From: Ktedonobacteraceae bacterium
Lineage (GTDB): Bacteria; Chloroflexota; Ktedonobacteria; Ktedonobacterales; Ktedonobacteraceae
Length of the DNA stretch: 64,000 bases
Assembly: GCA_035653615.1 (NCBI GenBank)
Contig: DASRBN010000030.1
Span: 1 to 64,000, forward strand
Reading direction: 5' to 3'
Shown: one piece after another, positions 58,393 through 64,000 of the stretch
Numbering within the stretch: the stretch's first letter is position 1
How the letters are laid out: every line of letters begins with the position of its first letter
Notes under the pieces: generated by a model
What the model was told of the DNA's origin: nothing
The model's input: only the letters and a program-made list of their open reading frames with translations
The model's database searches: none
Translations under genes and position numbers: made by a program

Positions 58393-60093
58393 ATGAACTG
58401 GCTTGAACGATTTCGTCTATCGCTGTTAGAAATAAAACAGGAGCAGCGAGGGAGTAAAATCTTCGTCGATAGCGTAGTAGCGGTACTAGGAGCGCTTGTT
58501 GTTACCTTCATCATTTACTTTTTTCACCTTTACCCACGTATTCCGAATATATCGCTACTATATATAGTAGTCGTGCTGGCACTGGCAAGTACACGTGGCC
58601 TCTATGCCGCTGTTCTTACGTCTATAGTGGCGTTCTTATCGTTCGATTACTTTCTGGTTCCTCCATACTATACCCTCAGCATTGCGAAGATTGATGAATG
58701 GCTGGCGTTATTCATTTTTCTGGTTACCGCGATCATTACCGGACAACTTGCATCTGCTCTACGCAAGCGCGCGGAACAGGCAAGACGCCGCGAGTATGAG
58801 ACGAGAATTCTTTATGAACTTGTGCGCGATATGAATAGAGAAGAGAATCTGCAGAGGCAGTTGGATATCATTGTGCATGGGATTGCCGATAACTTTTCTT
58901 CCTGGGGCGTCCGTGATTGCGCTATTTTTCTTCCTGACTCTGCCGGGCGCCTCGTTTTACAGGAGAGCGCGCGAGAACCGGCGGTTCAAGTCAATCTTTT
59001 GCCCGATGAAGAAGCAACCGCGGCCTGGGTGATGGCGCAATCGCAAACCGTTGAATTGCACGATGTCGCGTTAAATCCCCCCCAATTGTCGGTTAACGCG
59101 CCGAGGGCAGTAGTGCGTAGTACCAGGCACGGACAGGTGGCACGCCATTACATACGCTTGATACCCCTAAAGCTAGGGCAAAAAGTGGTTGGTGTGCTGC
59201 GTCTTTCGATGGAAGACGACCCCCAATTATTCGCCGCGGAAAGAAGCCTGGGAGTGGAACAGGAGAGATCAAATCCGCGTATGGCCTTTTTCTGGGCCTT
59301 TGTCGATCAGGCGGCGGTTGCGATTGAGCGCGCGCGTTTAAGGCATGAAAGTTTGCGAGTCCAGGTTTTGCAGCGTACAGATGAACTGCGAGCAGCGCTG
59401 CTCTCTTCTGTCTCGCATGATCTGCGCACCCCTCTTTCAGCGATTAAGGCGGCTGCTAGCAGTTTGTTGCAAGAGGATGTACAATGGGACGAAGAGGCAA
59501 GGCGGGGCTTTGCCCTGTCTATCGAACGGGAAGCAGATCGGCTCAACCGGCTGGTTGAGAATCTACTGGATATGTCGCGTATCGAGGGCGGGGCGCTCAA
59601 ACCTGAAAAAGAGTGGTATCCGGTAGATGAACTGGTTCATGACGTGTTAGGGCGTTTGCAACCGGACTTACGAGGACGCGAGGTGATCCTGGATTTACCT
59701 GCCAGTTTGCCACCTGTCAAATTAGACTACATGGAAATAGACCAGGTGTTGACCAATATTATAGAGAATGCGGTGGACTATTCGCCCGCTGGATCGCCAA
59801 TAGAGATAAGCGCGAAAGTTGATAGCGATCAAATGGTGGTAAGTGTGGCAGATCGTGGCCCAGGTATTCCGCCAGACGATCTGGTGCGTATCTTTGATAA
59901 ATTTTATCGCATCAGGAATATAAAAACGAAATCGCCTCGCACTTCTGGGTCGGGATTAGGACTGGCAGTGAGCCGGGGGATGGTAGAGGCCCATGGAGGG
60001 CGTATCTGGGCGGAAAATCGTGAGGGCGGCGGATCGATCTTTCGTTTCACCTTGCCGCTAGGGAAAACAGAGAGGGTACTGCTCCATGAGTAA
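58393..60093 (+). CDS. KdpD-like sensor histidine kinase, copy 1
   Basis: The 566-aa kinase begins with a DUF4118 membrane unit of three to four helices (VVTFIIYFFHLYPRIPNISLLYIVVVLALASTRGLYAAVLTSIVAFLSFDYFLVPPYYTL), followed by a GAF-like domain (about 150-310). HisKA has SSVSHDLRTPLSAIKAAASSL with phospho-accepting His342, and HATPase_c has NIIENAVDYSPAGS, DRGPGIPPDD and SGSGLGLAVSRGMVEAHGG. It is the C-terminal part of KdpD without its N-terminal KdpD and Usp sensor domains. Its last eight bases overlap the response regulator. It is 60% or so alike, by eye, to copy 2 in the conserved parts. Confidence 0.87.
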   Translation: MNWLERFRLSLLEIKQEQRGSKIFVDSVVAVLGALVVTFIIYFFHLYPRIPNISLLYIVVVLALASTRGLYAAVLTSIVAFLSFDYFLVPPYYTLSIAKIDEWLALFIFLVTAIITGQLASALRKRAEQARRREYETRILYELVRDMNREENLQRQLDIIVHGIADNFSSWGVRDCAIFLPDSAGRLVLQESAREPAVQVNLLPDEEATAAWVMAQSQTVELHDVALNPPQLSVNAPRAVVRSTRHGQVARHYIRLIPLKLGQKVVGVLRLSMEDDPQLFAAERSLGVEQERSNPRMAFFWAFVDQAAVAIERARLRHESLRVQVLQRTDELRAALLSSVSHDLRTPLSAIKAAASSLLQEDVQWDEEARRGFALSIEREADRLNRLVENLLDMSRIEGGALKPEKEWYPVDELVHDVLGRLQPDLRGREVILDLPASLPPVKLDYMEIDQVLTNIIENAVDYSPAGSPIEISAKVDSDQMVVSVADRGPGIPPDDLVRIFDKFYRIRNIKTKSPRTSGSGLGLAVSRGMVEAHGGRIWAENREGGGSIFRFTLPLGKTERVLLHE

Positions 60094-60805
60094 GAGTGGC
60101 GCGCGCATTCTGGTTGTTGATGATGAGATCGAGATCATGCGGGCCTTGCAGCGCAGCCTGGCTGCACATGGATTTGAGGTGTTCACTGCCAATAGCGGTG
60201 AGGAAGCGCTGGATGCTATTATTCAGCACCGGCCTGACCTCATGATATTGGATCTGGGACTGCCAGGTATAAGTGGGCTGGAGGTCTGCAAGCGGGTACG
60301 GACGCAATCCAATTTGCCCATCATTGTGCTTTCCGTGAAGGATACCGAACGTGACAAAGTGCTGGCGCTCGATCTGGGGGCGGACGATTATGTTTCCAAG
60401 CCCTTTGGAATGAATGAGGTGCTGGCGCGTATCCGCGTGGCCTTGCGTCATGCCGCACAGGTCGAGTCTGGAACGGAACCCATCTTTACTGCTGGCCCAC
60501 TGAAAGTGGATTTTGCGCAAAGGCTCGTGCAGGTCAATGGAAAAGAGGTGAAGCTGACTCCAACCGAATACGACCTGCTCAAGGCCCTTATCAAGAACAG
60601 CGGCAAGATCATGACGCGCCAGATGTTGCTTTCCCAGGTCTGGGGAACCGGATATGGCGCCGAGTCTCATTACCTCCACGTGTATATAGGTCAGCTGCGC
60701 CGTAAAATTGAGCCTGATCCCGCGCATCCTCGTTTTATCCTCACTATATCTGGCGTCGGTTATCGCTTCAATGCTGACGAAGAAGTTGAGCCGGCCAGAT
60801 ATTGA
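60086..60805 (+). CDS. KdpE-like OmpR-family response regulator, copy 1
   Basis: The 239-aa regulator has a receiver domain with acidic pocket DD (12-13), phospho-accepting Asp56 (LMILDLGLPG), and Lys105 (VSKPFG), then a winged-helix DNA-binding domain (VKLTPTEYDLLKALIKNSGKIMTRQMLLSQVWG ... LHVYIGQLRRKIEPDPAHPRFILTISGVGYRF). This form is close to KdpE. It overlaps the cognate kinase by eight bases, which points to translational coupling. Confidence 0.9.
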   Translation: MSKSGARILVVDDEIEIMRALQRSLAAHGFEVFTANSGEEALDAIIQHRPDLMILDLGLPGISGLEVCKRVRTQSNLPIIVLSVKDTERDKVLALDLGADDYVSKPFGMNEVLARIRVALRHAAQVESGTEPIFTAGPLKVDFAQRLVQVNGKEVKLTPTEYDLLKALIKNSGKIMTRQMLLSQVWGTGYGAESHYLHVYIGQLRRKIEPDPAHPRFILTISGVGYRFNADEEVEPARY

Positions 60806-60853
60806 GCGAATCTTTAGCTCTTCGCGTTTTCTTCTTAGCACATATTGACCTGC

Positions 60854-60865
60854 TTTTAGCTAAAA
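60854..60865. promoter_or_regulatory. 12-bp palindrome TTTTAGCTAAAA
   Basis: A perfect palindrome lies in the 128-base gap before the Usp-domain gene, just after TTGACC (60845-60850). It could be an operator; no promoter with good spacing was found around it. Confidence 0.3.
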
Positions 60866-60933
60866 TGTGGACATGAATAAAGAGGTTATTCTTTGCCTCC
60901 GTGAGATATTGTCCCGGCTATCTGGAGGTCATG

Positions 60934-61515
60934 ATGAAAAAATGTTTACTACTCCCTTTTACGCATGGCATCGACTCATTTGCGGTTGAGCAGGCTATAC
61001 GGTTAGCGAAGAGCCTGGGTGCTACCCTCATTTCTCTCTCAATAATTTTTGTGCCGCAGGAACGATGTCCAGGAGGGGCTCGCCTCGAACATATTCAGCA
61101 GTCGAAGGATTTTCTGGAAATGGCGAAGTATAGGGCGGCAAGAATCGGTGTTCCTCTCAAATGCTTCGAGGTTTTTACATCTGACGTTGTGGAGAGTATT
61201 AACATTGTGGCGAGGGAACAGGGATGCGAGGGTATCTTGCTCTTCGTACAGGACAGGCGCGGCGTGCTTCTGCATGCAGATGAGATTAAGCATCTGATGG
61301 AGAGGGCGACTTGTAAGCTCTATATTATGCGCTTGCAGTTTGATGATAAAGATACTCCTGTACGATCTTTTCGCGAGCGTCTCTCTCATTTGCTTTCCCA
61401 GAGGGGGCGGAGATACCAGGGGATGCCGCTCGAAGTGCTGGCCTATGCTGAAGAGGAGGCATCCCCTCTCTTTTGTATTCCATCGGGCAGGAAGCCTGGC
61501 TATGAACGTAGTTGA
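60934..61515 (+). CDS. Usp-domain protein, possible detached KdpD sensor module
   Basis: The 193-aa protein starts MKKCLLLPFTHGIDSFAVEQAIRLAKSLGATLISLSIIFV, a universal-stress-protein fold, with a later strand-helix unit EQGCEGILLFVQDRRGVLLHADEIKHLMERATCKLYIMRL. KdpD carries a Usp domain in its cytoplasmic N-terminus; both KdpD-like kinases here lack it, so this gene may supply it in trans. The start is the second ATG after GGAGG (spacing 5); GTG at 60901 lacks a ribosome site. The end overlaps the next kinase by 14 bases. The C-terminal ~50 residues are basic then acidic and not Usp-like. Confidence 0.65.
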   Translation: MKKCLLLPFTHGIDSFAVEQAIRLAKSLGATLISLSIIFVPQERCPGGARLEHIQQSKDFLEMAKYRAARIGVPLKCFEVFTSDVVESINIVAREQGCEGILLFVQDRRGVLLHADEIKHLMERATCKLYIMRLQFDDKDTPVRSFRERLSHLLSQRGRRYQGMPLEVLAYAEEEASPLFCIPSGRKPGYERS

Positions 61516-63193
61516 GCATTTACCCGCAATCGAAGAAAGAAAAGCCCCGACCTGGAGAAGTTTCCTCTATGATACAGTTCTGGCAATAGCTGGAGCTTTG
61601 CTGATTACTGCTATCATCTTCTTGCTTCATCTCTATCCGCGCATTCCCAACATATCGTTTGCCTACCTGCTGGTTGTGCTGGCACTGGCGAGTACACGGG
61701 GATTGTATGCCTCAATTCTCACCTCTGTGACAGCATTTCTTTCGTTTGATTACTACCTCGTGCCGCCAATTTACACCTTTACAATACAAAGGGTGGACGA
61801 ATGGCTGGCCCTGTTTTTCTTCCTGGCGGTTTCCATCATCACGGCGCAATTCGCTACGGCCCTGCGGAAGCGTGCGGAGGAAGCGCGGCGGCACGAACGT
61901 GAGATGCACATCCTCTTCGATCTCGTGCGCGTCACCAATCGAGAAGATGATCTTTCCAGGGAACTCAGCGTGGTTGCCCGTGCATTTGTGGATGTGTTTT
62001 CGCCGTGGGGGGTGCGTGCATGTTCGATTCTGCTACCGGATGAAAGTGGAGCGCTTACTGTACGCGCATCCGCCAATGGACTTGCAGCGATCAAGCCGGA
62101 GGAACGTTCCTCTGATGAGGAAGCAACGTGTTCATGGGTACTCTCTCATGGCCAATCCGTAAAGCTGCACGAGACATCAACTTCTCTACAGAAGTCGGCT
62201 TATACGCTGCGAGTTTCTGCAACTGGCAGGGCTGAACTCCCTGATTCACGTTACGCACTCTACCTGCTCCCACTCAGGGTGGGGCAAAAGGCCGTGGGCG
62301 TCCTTCGTCTCAAGATCGAGGGGAACCCGCACTGGCTTTCTTCGGAGTCATCTCTAGATGATGAAAAAGAGCGCGCAAGCTCGCAGACAGCTTTCTTCTG
62401 GACCTTCCTGGAACAGGCTTCGACGATGATTGAACAGGCGAGTTTGCGCCAGGAAACGATGCAGGTCGAGGTCTTGCGACGCACAGATGCCTTGCGTACT
62501 GCCCTGCTTTCCTCTGTTTCGCATGATTTGCGCACTCCGCTAGCCTCGATAAAGGCAGCGGCCAGCAGTCTCCAGCAGGAAGATATGCAGTGGGATGAGG
62601 AGGCGCGCCGCAGCTTTGCTAATACTATTGAACGTGAGGCTGATCGTCTCAATCGCCTTGTTGAGAACCTGCTGGATATGTCACGCATTGAAGCAGGTGC
62701 GCTCAAGCCTGAGAAAGAGTGGTATTCGATCACCGCTTTGATCCAGGATGTGGTGGGGCGCCTGCAGCCGCTTTTACAGACAAGGGAGATACGAGCCTCT
62801 TTGCCTGCTGATTTGCCACCGGTAAAGATAGATTATCTCTACATTGATCAGGTCCTGACAAATCTCCTGGAAAATGCCACGCGCTACACACCACCAGATT
62901 CGCCGATTGATCTCAGCACGGCAGTGAAAAATAACTTCATACTTGTCAGCGTCGCTGATCGCGGCCCGGGCATTCCTGCCGGTGAGCGCGAGCGCATATT
63001 TGACAAGTTCTACCGCATACTTGGGAGCCAGCGCGATACGAGAGGATCGGGATTAGGTCTTGCTGTCAGTCGTGGGCTTATTGAAGCTCACGGAGGGCGT
63101 ATCTGGGTAGAGGCGCGTGAGGGGGGCGGCTCTGTGTTTCGTTTCACGCTTCCGCTTGAGAACATAGAAGAGGGACATTTCCATGATGAATGA
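61502..63193 (+). CDS. KdpD-like sensor histidine kinase, copy 2
   Basis: The 563-aa protein has the same order as copy 1: DUF4118 membrane unit (ITAIIFLLHLYPRIPNISFAYLLVVLALASTRGLYASILTSVTAFLSFDYYLVPPIYTFTI), GAF-like domain, HisKA with SSVSHDLRTPLASIKAAASSL and His341, and HATPase_c with NLLENATRYTPPDS, DRGPGIPAGE and SGLGLAVSRGLIEAHGG. The start is the ATG at 61502 with AGGAAG upstream and 14 bases of overlap with the Usp gene; the longer in-frame reading is not supported. It overlaps the second response regulator by 11 bases. Confidence 0.87.
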   Translation: MNVVEHLPAIEERKAPTWRSFLYDTVLAIAGALLITAIIFLLHLYPRIPNISFAYLLVVLALASTRGLYASILTSVTAFLSFDYYLVPPIYTFTIQRVDEWLALFFFLAVSIITAQFATALRKRAEEARRHEREMHILFDLVRVTNREDDLSRELSVVARAFVDVFSPWGVRACSILLPDESGALTVRASANGLAAIKPEERSSDEEATCSWVLSHGQSVKLHETSTSLQKSAYTLRVSATGRAELPDSRYALYLLPLRVGQKAVGVLRLKIEGNPHWLSSESSLDDEKERASSQTAFFWTFLEQASTMIEQASLRQETMQVEVLRRTDALRTALLSSVSHDLRTPLASIKAAASSLQQEDMQWDEEARRSFANTIEREADRLNRLVENLLDMSRIEAGALKPEKEWYSITALIQDVVGRLQPLLQTREIRASLPADLPPVKIDYLYIDQVLTNLLENATRYTPPDSPIDLSTAVKNNFILVSVADRGPGIPAGERERIFDKFYRILGSQRDTRGSGLGLAVSRGLIEAHGGRIWVEAREGGGSVFRFTLPLENIEEGHFHDE

Positions 63194-63881
63194 AGACGCG
63201 CACATTCTGGTAGTCGATGATGATATTGGTATTCAACGCGCTCTACAACGCAGCTTGAGCGCCTATGGCTATCAAGTGAGCACTGTCAGCACCGGTGAGG
63301 AGGCGCTGGAGGAAATTGCTCGGAAACGTCCCGACCTTGTTTTACTCGACCTGGGATTGCCCGGCATGAGCGGTCTGGAGGTGTGTGAGAAGATACGCAC
63401 CGGGTCCAATCTTCCGATCATCGTGCTTTCTATTAAGAACTCGGAACAGGATAAAGTCCGCGCGCTTGATCTTGGTGCCGACGATTACGTCTCCAAACCC
63501 TTTGGAATCAACGAGGTTCTCGCTCGCGTTCGTGTGGCGCTGCGCCATGCTACGCAGCGATACTCTGAGACGGAACAGGTTGTGAAAGCAGGTTCTTTGA
63601 CGATTGACTTTACGAAACGAAAAGTGCTGGTAGATGGACGTGATATCAAGCTTACACCGACCGAATATGAATTGCTGGCCGCCCTGGTGCAGCACAGCGG
63701 CAAGATCATGACGCGCCATATGCTGCTCTCTCAAGTGTGGGGGAATGGTTACGAAGCGGACGCGCATTATCTGCACGTTTATGTGGCTCACCTGCGGCAA
63801 AAGATCGAACCAGACCCGGCGCATCCATGCTTTATATTGACCATCCCTGGCGTCGGTTACCGCTTCAACTCAGAATTCTAG
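63183..63881 (+). CDS. KdpE-like OmpR-family response regulator, copy 2
   Basis: The 232-aa regulator has Asp56 (LVLLDLGLPG), Lys105 (VSKPFG) and the winged-helix domain IKLTPTEYELLAALVQHSGKIMTRHMLLSQVWGNGYEAD. It is a close paralogue of copy 1; the two share nearly the whole recognition helix region, so they may bind related sites. Overlap with the kinase suggests coupling. The ATG at 63183 or its neighbour at 63186 may be used. No kdpFABC gene follows within the window. Confidence 0.9.
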   Translation: MMNEDAHILVVDDDIGIQRALQRSLSAYGYQVSTVSTGEEALEEIARKRPDLVLLDLGLPGMSGLEVCEKIRTGSNLPIIVLSIKNSEQDKVRALDLGADDYVSKPFGINEVLARVRVALRHATQRYSETEQVVKAGSLTIDFTKRKVLVDGRDIKLTPTEYELLAALVQHSGKIMTRHMLLSQVWGNGYEADAHYLHVYVAHLRQKIEPDPAHPCFILTIPGVGYRFNSEF

Positions 63882-64000
63882 GTTGACACCCTATTCCTAT
63901 TGCTCATTTTGAGCAAACATTGAGATGCCGCATTATTCTTCTTAGTTCATCTTGATACGAAAAGCGCGATAATTGCTGTAAAGGTAAGATCAGTCAGTGG
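63882..64000. other. End of window, no gene
   Basis: The last 119 bases hold no reading frame. TTGCTCATTTTGAGCAA (63900-63916) is a small perfect hairpin but has no T-tract. Whether kdp transport genes follow cannot be seen. Confidence 0.4.

What the first reader, a model, noticed from the sequence alone, without database searches (positions are those of the whole stretch)
58393..63881. Duplicated KdpD/KdpE-like module with a Usp gene between the copies
Two DUF4118-GAF-histidine kinases and two KdpE-like regulators lie in direct tandem, each kinase overlapping its regulator. Neither kinase has the N-terminal KdpD or Usp domains, yet a stand-alone Usp-domain protein sits between them and overlaps the second kinase. 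This looks like a KdpD whose stress-sensing half has been split off and shared. The two regulators are so alike in their DNA-binding half that cross-regulation is possible. No kdpFABC operon is in view, so the targets may not be potassium transport.
Basis: partly seen in the sequence, partly recalled or inferred. Interest (0 to 1): 0.65.

Follow-up and report, generated by a model that had tools for sequence, protein, structure and literature searches.

The report
Split potassium-pump control locus, duplicated
The two similar sensor-regulator pairs and the stress-type protein between them are the front end of a complete potassium-pump (Kdp) locus whose pump genes start just past the window's edge, in a bacterial family where the usual potassium sensor KdpD is made as separate proteins.

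Summary
The window ends 253 bp after the last of them begins to be explained: on the same 330-kb contig RR2 is followed by a stand-alone receiver (REC), kdpF, kdpA, kdpB, kdpC and a 439-aa KdpD-domain+Usp protein (KdpDN). This is a kdp locus with a split KdpD. The missing half is KdpDN, not the Usp between the kinases, which is a generic Usp-fold protein. Split KdpD is published (Deinococcus radiodurans; survey PMC11018627) and universal in this class. K-RR-Usp-K-RR occurs in only 2 genomes, whose duplications look independent. Three things go beyond the papers found. (1) A spacing-specific direct repeat, TTGAG-N6-TTGAG, lies upstream of Usp-K2-RR2 and REC-kdp, and family-wide upstream of Usp, REC, KimA/APC permeases and stand-alone DUF4118-GAF proteins: a predicted KdpE-type K+ regulon. 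(2) REC precedes kdpA in 38 of 48 split loci and 0 of 17 full-length-KdpD loci, though this rests on one evolutionary change. (3) Diadenylate cyclase was not found in 46 of 47 class genomes, so c-di-AMP, the published signal for short KdpD, is probably unavailable. How KdpDN senses K+ is open.

The parts
58393..60093 (+). K1: DUF4118-GAF-HisKA-HATPase histidine kinase (C-terminal half of KdpD)
   Evidence: Pfam, NCBIfam best hit PRK10490 KdpD positions 401-885 of 895; 33% identical to E. coli KdpD
60086..60805 (+). RR1: KdpE-like OmpR-family response regulator
   Evidence: Pfam; NCBIfam best hit KdpE, 230.6 bits, below equivalog cut-off 325; 47% identical to E. coli KdpE
60802..60817 (+). operator-like direct repeat TTGAGCGAATCTTTAG (1 mismatch) in front of Usp-K2-RR2
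   Evidence: perfect copies in front of the Usp gene in 11 of 30 family loci
60934..61515 (+). stand-alone Usp-fold protein, 193 aa, family-specific, no G-2X-G-9X-G(S/T) ATP motif
61502..63193 (+). K2: second DUF4118-GAF-HisKA-HATPase kinase (ATG start; the TTG at 61340 is the mechanical ORF start)
63183..63881 (+). RR2: second KdpE-like response regulator (scores KdpE 229.3 and MtrA 231.5 bits about equally)
63909..63924 (+). perfect operator TTGAGCAAACATTGAG upstream of REC-kdpFABC-kdpDN (operon itself at contig 64134-70835, outside the window)

Best explanation
The region is the regulatory head of a complete split Kdp K+-uptake locus: K1-RR1 | Usp-K2-RR2 | REC-orf27-kdpF-kdpA-kdpB-kdpC-kdpDN. 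Shown by sequence: gene content, domain split, conserved catalytic residues, and a shared direct-repeat operator before Usp-K2-RR2 and before REC-kdp but not before K1. Inferred: at low K+ the membrane kinases (DUF4118-GAF) phosphorylate the KdpE-like regulators, which bind the 11-bp-period repeats and switch on the pump, the second kinase module, KimA-type importers and accessory proteins. K1-RR1 would be the always-present copy; Usp-K2-RR2 the induced copy that reinforces the response. At high K+ the separate KdpDN acts as a serine kinase that shuts down KdpB at Ser162, as published for E. coli and D. geothermalis KdpD. The Usp most likely docks on KdpDN or the kinases as UspC docks on KdpD in E. 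coli; this last step is the least certain (about 0.3). The confidence below is for the identity of the locus and its K+ target; the division of labour between the two copies is about 0.45.
For: kdpFABC and KdpDN directly downstream. KdpDN is separate and short in all class genomes that have it. Serine-kinase residues GKT, DE and R190 conserved 39/39, W39 replaced by Y/F; KdpB E161/S162 conserved 32/32. Operator perfect upstream of Usp 11/30, REC 7/28, DUF4118-GAF 8/23, APC permease 6/15, other ORFs 7/526. Spacing N6 gives 27 of 98 windows, neighbouring spacings 0-2, and TTGAG ranks first of 1024 pentamers. No site with 2 or fewer mismatches before K1. Usp lies in kdp or permease loci in 17 of 25 family genomes. 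Split KdpD and serine-kinase function published: PMC5716572, PMC11018627.
Against: No expression, binding or phosphorylation data. RR2 scores marginally better as MtrA than KdpE. Fisher p-values treat related genomes, and divergent genes that share one intergenic region, as independent. The Usp also sits in non-K+ contexts (for example next to ribonucleotide reductase or an MFS permease) in 8 genomes. Assignment of constitutive and induced roles rests only on presence or absence of an operator match.
Confidence: 0.85

Rival explanations
1. One reading: the Usp between the kinases is the KdpD Usp domain split off and shared by both kinases.
For: Usp fold; overlap with K2; Usp family often in kdp loci.
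Against: KdpDN still carries its own fused Usp domain downstream; the window Usp is closer in sequence to a generic Usp; it also occurs away from kdp, for example with KimA or ribonucleotide reductase.
Confidence: 0.05
2. The second kinase-regulator pair has taken on a different signal or targets outside potassium transport.
For: 59% identity between kinases, N-terminal sensor halves only 50%; RR2 ambiguous KdpE/MtrA.
Against: Both regulators keep the HYLHVY...LR(R/Q)KI helix; the same operator precedes K2-RR2 and kdp; the pair sits directly in front of REC-kdp; DHp regions nearly identical.
Confidence: 0.2
3. The stand-alone receiver REC relays kinase activity to KdpDN, so that the serine kinase is switched by the histidine kinase in trans and c-di-AMP is not needed. 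(An add-on to the best explanation rather than an alternative to it.)
For: REC precedes kdpA in 38 of 48 split loci and 0 of 17 full-length loci; K-REC-KdpDN with neither RR nor pump genes adjacent in genus g3, and K-REC-kdpABC-KdpDN without RR in G320; phosphorylation residues kept in 27 of 33; no DAC in 46 of 47 class genomes.
Against: Split versus full-length is a single change on the KdpB tree, so the association is not statistically independent; other Chloroflexota with REC mostly have DAC; REC could be a phosphate sink.
Confidence: 0.25

Closest known systems
Split kdp locus of Deinococcus radiodurans (kdpBAC-kdpD-N plus separate SK and RR; PMC5716572)
   Same: KdpD N-half at the end of the pump operon; separate sensor kinase and KdpE-like regulator upstream
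   Different: There SK/RR are divergent and single; no stand-alone receiver is described and 'usp' does not occur in the text. Here all genes are in line, K-RR is duplicated, with a Usp insert and a REC
KdpD/Usp serine kinase plus TM/GAF/DHpCA histidine kinase on separate chains (domain survey, PMC11018627)
   Same: Same division of domains; serine-kinase and KdpB target residues conserved
   Different: D. geothermalis KdpD is stimulated by c-di-AMP; here no diadenylate cyclase and no S. aureus-type SXS-X20-FTAXY motif were found
E. coli KdpD/KdpE with UspC scaffold (PMC2714519)
   Same: Kinase, regulator, K+ pump target; a soluble Usp acting on KdpD is precedented
   Different: KdpD is one chain there; UspC is not encoded in the kdp locus (one search lists that locus)
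TeaD, Usp of a TRAP transporter (PDB 3hgm)
   Same: Top fold match; a dedicated Usp tied to a transporter
   Different: Different transporter class; the window family lacks the ATP motif

Membership tests
KdpD (full-length sensor kinase) | KdpD + Usp + DUF4118 + GAF + HisKA/HATPase on one chain | tested here: not met
   K1/K2 lack PF02702 and Usp; 258 and 238 bits against equivalog cut-off 1123
Split KdpD (kinase half) | DUF4118-GAF-HisKA-HATPase encoded next to kdp together with a separate KdpD-Usp protein | tested here: met
KdpD-like non-kinase sensor / KdpD serine kinase (KdpDN, outside window) | PF02702 with Walker A GKT, Walker B DE, R190 | tested here: met
   323.7 bits PF02702; residues 39/39, W39 replaced by Y/F; NCBIfam NF038185 405.7 bits, below its 550 cut-off
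KdpE | OmpR-type regulator controlling kdpFABC | tested here: inconclusive
   receiver + Trans_reg_C, adjacent to kdp, operator found, but below the KdpE equivalog cut-off; DNA binding not testable here
Universal stress protein | Usp fold | tested here: met
   pLDDT 83, Foldseek 3hgm E 1.5e-7
KdpD Usp domain | specific kinship to KdpD Usp domain rather than to generic Usp | tested here: not met
c-di-AMP-controlled short KdpD | diadenylate cyclase in the genome and c-di-AMP motif in the Usp domain | tested here: not met
   PF02457 not found in own and 45 other class genomes; S. aureus-type motif absent in all KdpDN examined; ligand binding itself not testable
Kdp pump | kdpF, A, B, C genes | tested here: met
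   PF09604, PF03814, PF02669; KdpB identified as a P-type ATPase (PF00122/PF00702) that aligns to E. coli KdpB with TGES162 and D307 kept

The most novel reading that the evidence does not exclude
KdpD works here as an assembly in trans: KdpDN (serine kinase), kinase-less DUF4118-GAF proteins (membrane/K+-sensing part), DUF4118-GAF kinases, a dedicated receiver and a dedicated Usp, all in one KdpE regulon with kdp and KimA-type importers. The receiver and/or the kinase-less DUF4118-GAF protein would replace c-di-AMP as the K+ signal to the serine kinase.
Probability: 0.2. Interest if true: 0.75.

Novelty: new variant of a known kind. Interest (0 to 1): 0.5.

Why it matters
Short KdpD proteins were called a 'conundrum' because they lack the K+-sensing domains; c-di-AMP was the proposed answer (PMC11018627). 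This lineage appears to have no c-di-AMP synthase, yet keeps the serine-kinase residues and the KdpB target serine. It therefore makes the question of what else can gate this kinase directly testable, with named candidates from the same locus and regulon. The operator found here also gives a predicted K+ regulon for Ktedonobacteraceae.

Tried and rejected
PDB sequence search with the Usp found nothing relevant; fold search was needed. The Rfam scan found no riboswitch in the locus, so a c-di-AMP riboswitch in front of kdp as in Bacillus is not supported. The sigma-70 promoter/terminator scan was at chance level. The kinase tree could not tell whether K1 and K2 are sisters (p-AU 0.44). REC/split association: striking in counts but only one independent pair, so not claimed as statistical proof. 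The c-di-AMP motif of S. aureus KdpD was sought and not found. The 23-row Usp alignment was too variable for a collection scan; a 7-row one was used and gave only Ktedonobacteraceae/Ktedonobacterales MAGs.

Full report
Observation. The five ORFs exist as described. Pfam gives DUF4118, weak GAF, HisKA and HATPase for both kinases and receiver + Trans_reg_C for both regulators. H-box, N and G boxes, receiver aspartates and lysines are intact by eye in the translations. K2 most likely starts at ATG 61502, overlapping the Usp stop by 14 nt. K1/K2 are 59% identical (N-halves 50%, catalytic halves 71%); RR1/RR2 69% (receivers 71%, DNA-binding halves 65%).

Beyond the window. The window is contig C30:1-64000 of a 330-kb contig. 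From 64134 onward, same strand: a stand-alone receiver; a 27-aa membrane-type ORF (64627-64710); kdpF (64731-64826, PF09604); kdpA (64862-66613), kdpB (66615-68813), kdpC (68839-69477); and KdpDN, 439 aa (69516-70835, PF02702 323.7 bits + Usp 56.7 bits). After that come a Ca/Na exchanger, a kinase-less DUF4118-GAF protein (72100-73122), another Usp, an APC permease and a KimA-like gene. KimA identity was tested on the homologue in G044 (PDB 6s3k, E 2e-139). So 'no kdp operon' was a window-edge effect.

What was split. In all 39 of 47 class genomes with a strong KdpD-domain match, that domain sits in a short ORF without kinase; elsewhere in the phylum both short and 885-941-aa forms occur. In a KdpB tree of 52 loci, the full-length forms make one clade among split ones. 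Split KdpD is published for D. radiodurans (PMC5716572). A survey of 5495 species reports KdpD/Usp serine kinase plus TM/GAF/DHpCA histidine kinase on separate chains (PMC11018627). I therefore file the locus as a split Kdp system.

The Usp. Relatives occur in 25 genomes of the same family plus one very weak hit outside it; named records are all Ktedonobacteraceae/Ktedonobacterales MAGs. Contexts: in kdp loci in 12 genomes (between RR and REC; between two K-RR pairs; or after KdpDN), next to KimA-like or APC permeases in 5 more, elsewhere in 8. The AlphaFold2 model (pLDDT 83) is a Usp fold, best matched by TeaD; the KdpD Usp domain is fourth. Profile comparison favours a generic Usp over KdpD-Usp. 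Precedent for a soluble Usp acting on KdpD: UspC in E. coli (PMC2714519).

Duplication. K-RR-Usp-K-RR-REC-kdpA recurs only in G029 (L047). G029's two kinases group with each other and with a kinase of its sister genome G028 (100/98), apart from K1/K2 of the window, so the arrangement arose separately or was blurred by gene conversion. A single K-RR before REC-kdp is commoner.

Operator. Upstream of REC in 19 family loci, exact 6-mer repeats with an 11-bp period are in excess (16 against 1.3 expected), with a second excess at 21 bp. The core is TTGAG-N6-TTGAG. Tested on other gene classes: perfect copies before Usp 11/30, DUF4118-GAF 8/23, APC permeases 6/15, and REC 7/28 (the class it was derived from); 7/526 before other ORFs, several of which look like divergent neighbours of the same genes. 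Only N6 spacing is enriched, apart from 8 at N16 (21-bp period), and TTGAG is first of 1024 pentamers. Own sites: 60802 (1 mismatch, before Usp-K2-RR2), 63909 (perfect, before REC-kdp), C30:72015 (1 mismatch, before DUF4118-GAF), C30:75871 (perfect, between permease and KimA). None with 2 or fewer mismatches precedes K1. Genome-wide there are 15 perfect sites against 3 for the reversed pattern; 2 of the 15 lie within 12 kb here, and the rest were only partly looked at and include sites inside coding sequence, so the motif alone is not a regulon map. Caveat: the p-values ignore kinship of genomes and shared intergenic regions.

Post-translational arm. The serine-kinase residues of KdpD (with W39 replaced by Y/F) and KdpB E161/S162 are conserved. 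c-di-AMP stimulates the short D. geothermalis KdpD, but PF02457 is found in 1 of 47 class genomes, against 38 of 40 other kdp-bearing Chloroflexota. The S. aureus c-di-AMP motif is absent. Some other signal is likely. Candidates are the receiver, the kinases, the kinase-less DUF4118-GAF proteins (14 family genomes; also between kdpB and kdpC in other Chloroflexota with full-length KdpD), and the Usp.

Receiver. It precedes kdpA in 38/48 split and 0/17 full-length loci. Its acid pocket and lysine are lost in genus g11, where no kinase lies in the locus, but other kinase-less loci keep them. I found no paper describing it; the library searched holds open-licence papers only.

Verdict. Observation confirmed; interpretation half right. 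Ordinary in kind (split Kdp), with an apparently unreported regulon and an open signalling question that can be tested.

Noticed in passing
C30:64134-64634 (L008:7135-7635): Stand-alone receiver in front of kdpF-kdpA, conserved across split-KdpD loci of Chloroflexota and absent from full-length-KdpD loci.
   Followed up: yes
C30:72100-73122 (L008:15101-16123); L050, L073, L108-L118, L120-L124, L126: Kinase-less DUF4118-GAF proteins in at least 14 family genomes, often scattered in the genome but with the same TTGAG-N6-TTGAG operator upstream (8 of 23 perfect).
   Followed up: partly
L150, L153, L162, L166: A stand-alone DUF4118-GAF-like ORF (249-268 aa) between kdpB and kdpC in other Chloroflexota that have full-length KdpD.
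   Followed up: no
L113:765-3362, L114:2202-4803, L118:7287-9885, L097:17629-19901: kdpC-kdpA gene pairs with no kdpB found nearby; in genus g8 an amino-acid-kinase family gene (tested in L114) and a DUF4118-GAF gene follow. KdpC precedes KdpA and has a long internal insert.
   Followed up: partly
C30:64627-64710: 27-aa membrane-type ORF MLDVIIILVTIITFVAFIGFTEGCERL overlapping the REC stop; similar peptides recur in many related kdp loci; no Pfam or NCBIfam family.
   Followed up: partly
L075:12359-15854, L077:12588-16119: Kinase-REC-KdpDN operon without pump genes or response regulator in genus g3; kdpA is on another contig.
   Followed up: no
L065-L069, L071: In genus g11 the receiver before kdpA has lost its acidic pocket and lysine (T-S/G-D-S-R), and the DUF4118 kinase has left the locus.
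   Followed up: partly
class-wide: Diadenylate cyclase domain PF02457 found in only 1 of 47 genomes of the class, while nearly all other kdp-bearing Chloroflexota sampled have it.
   Followed up: yes
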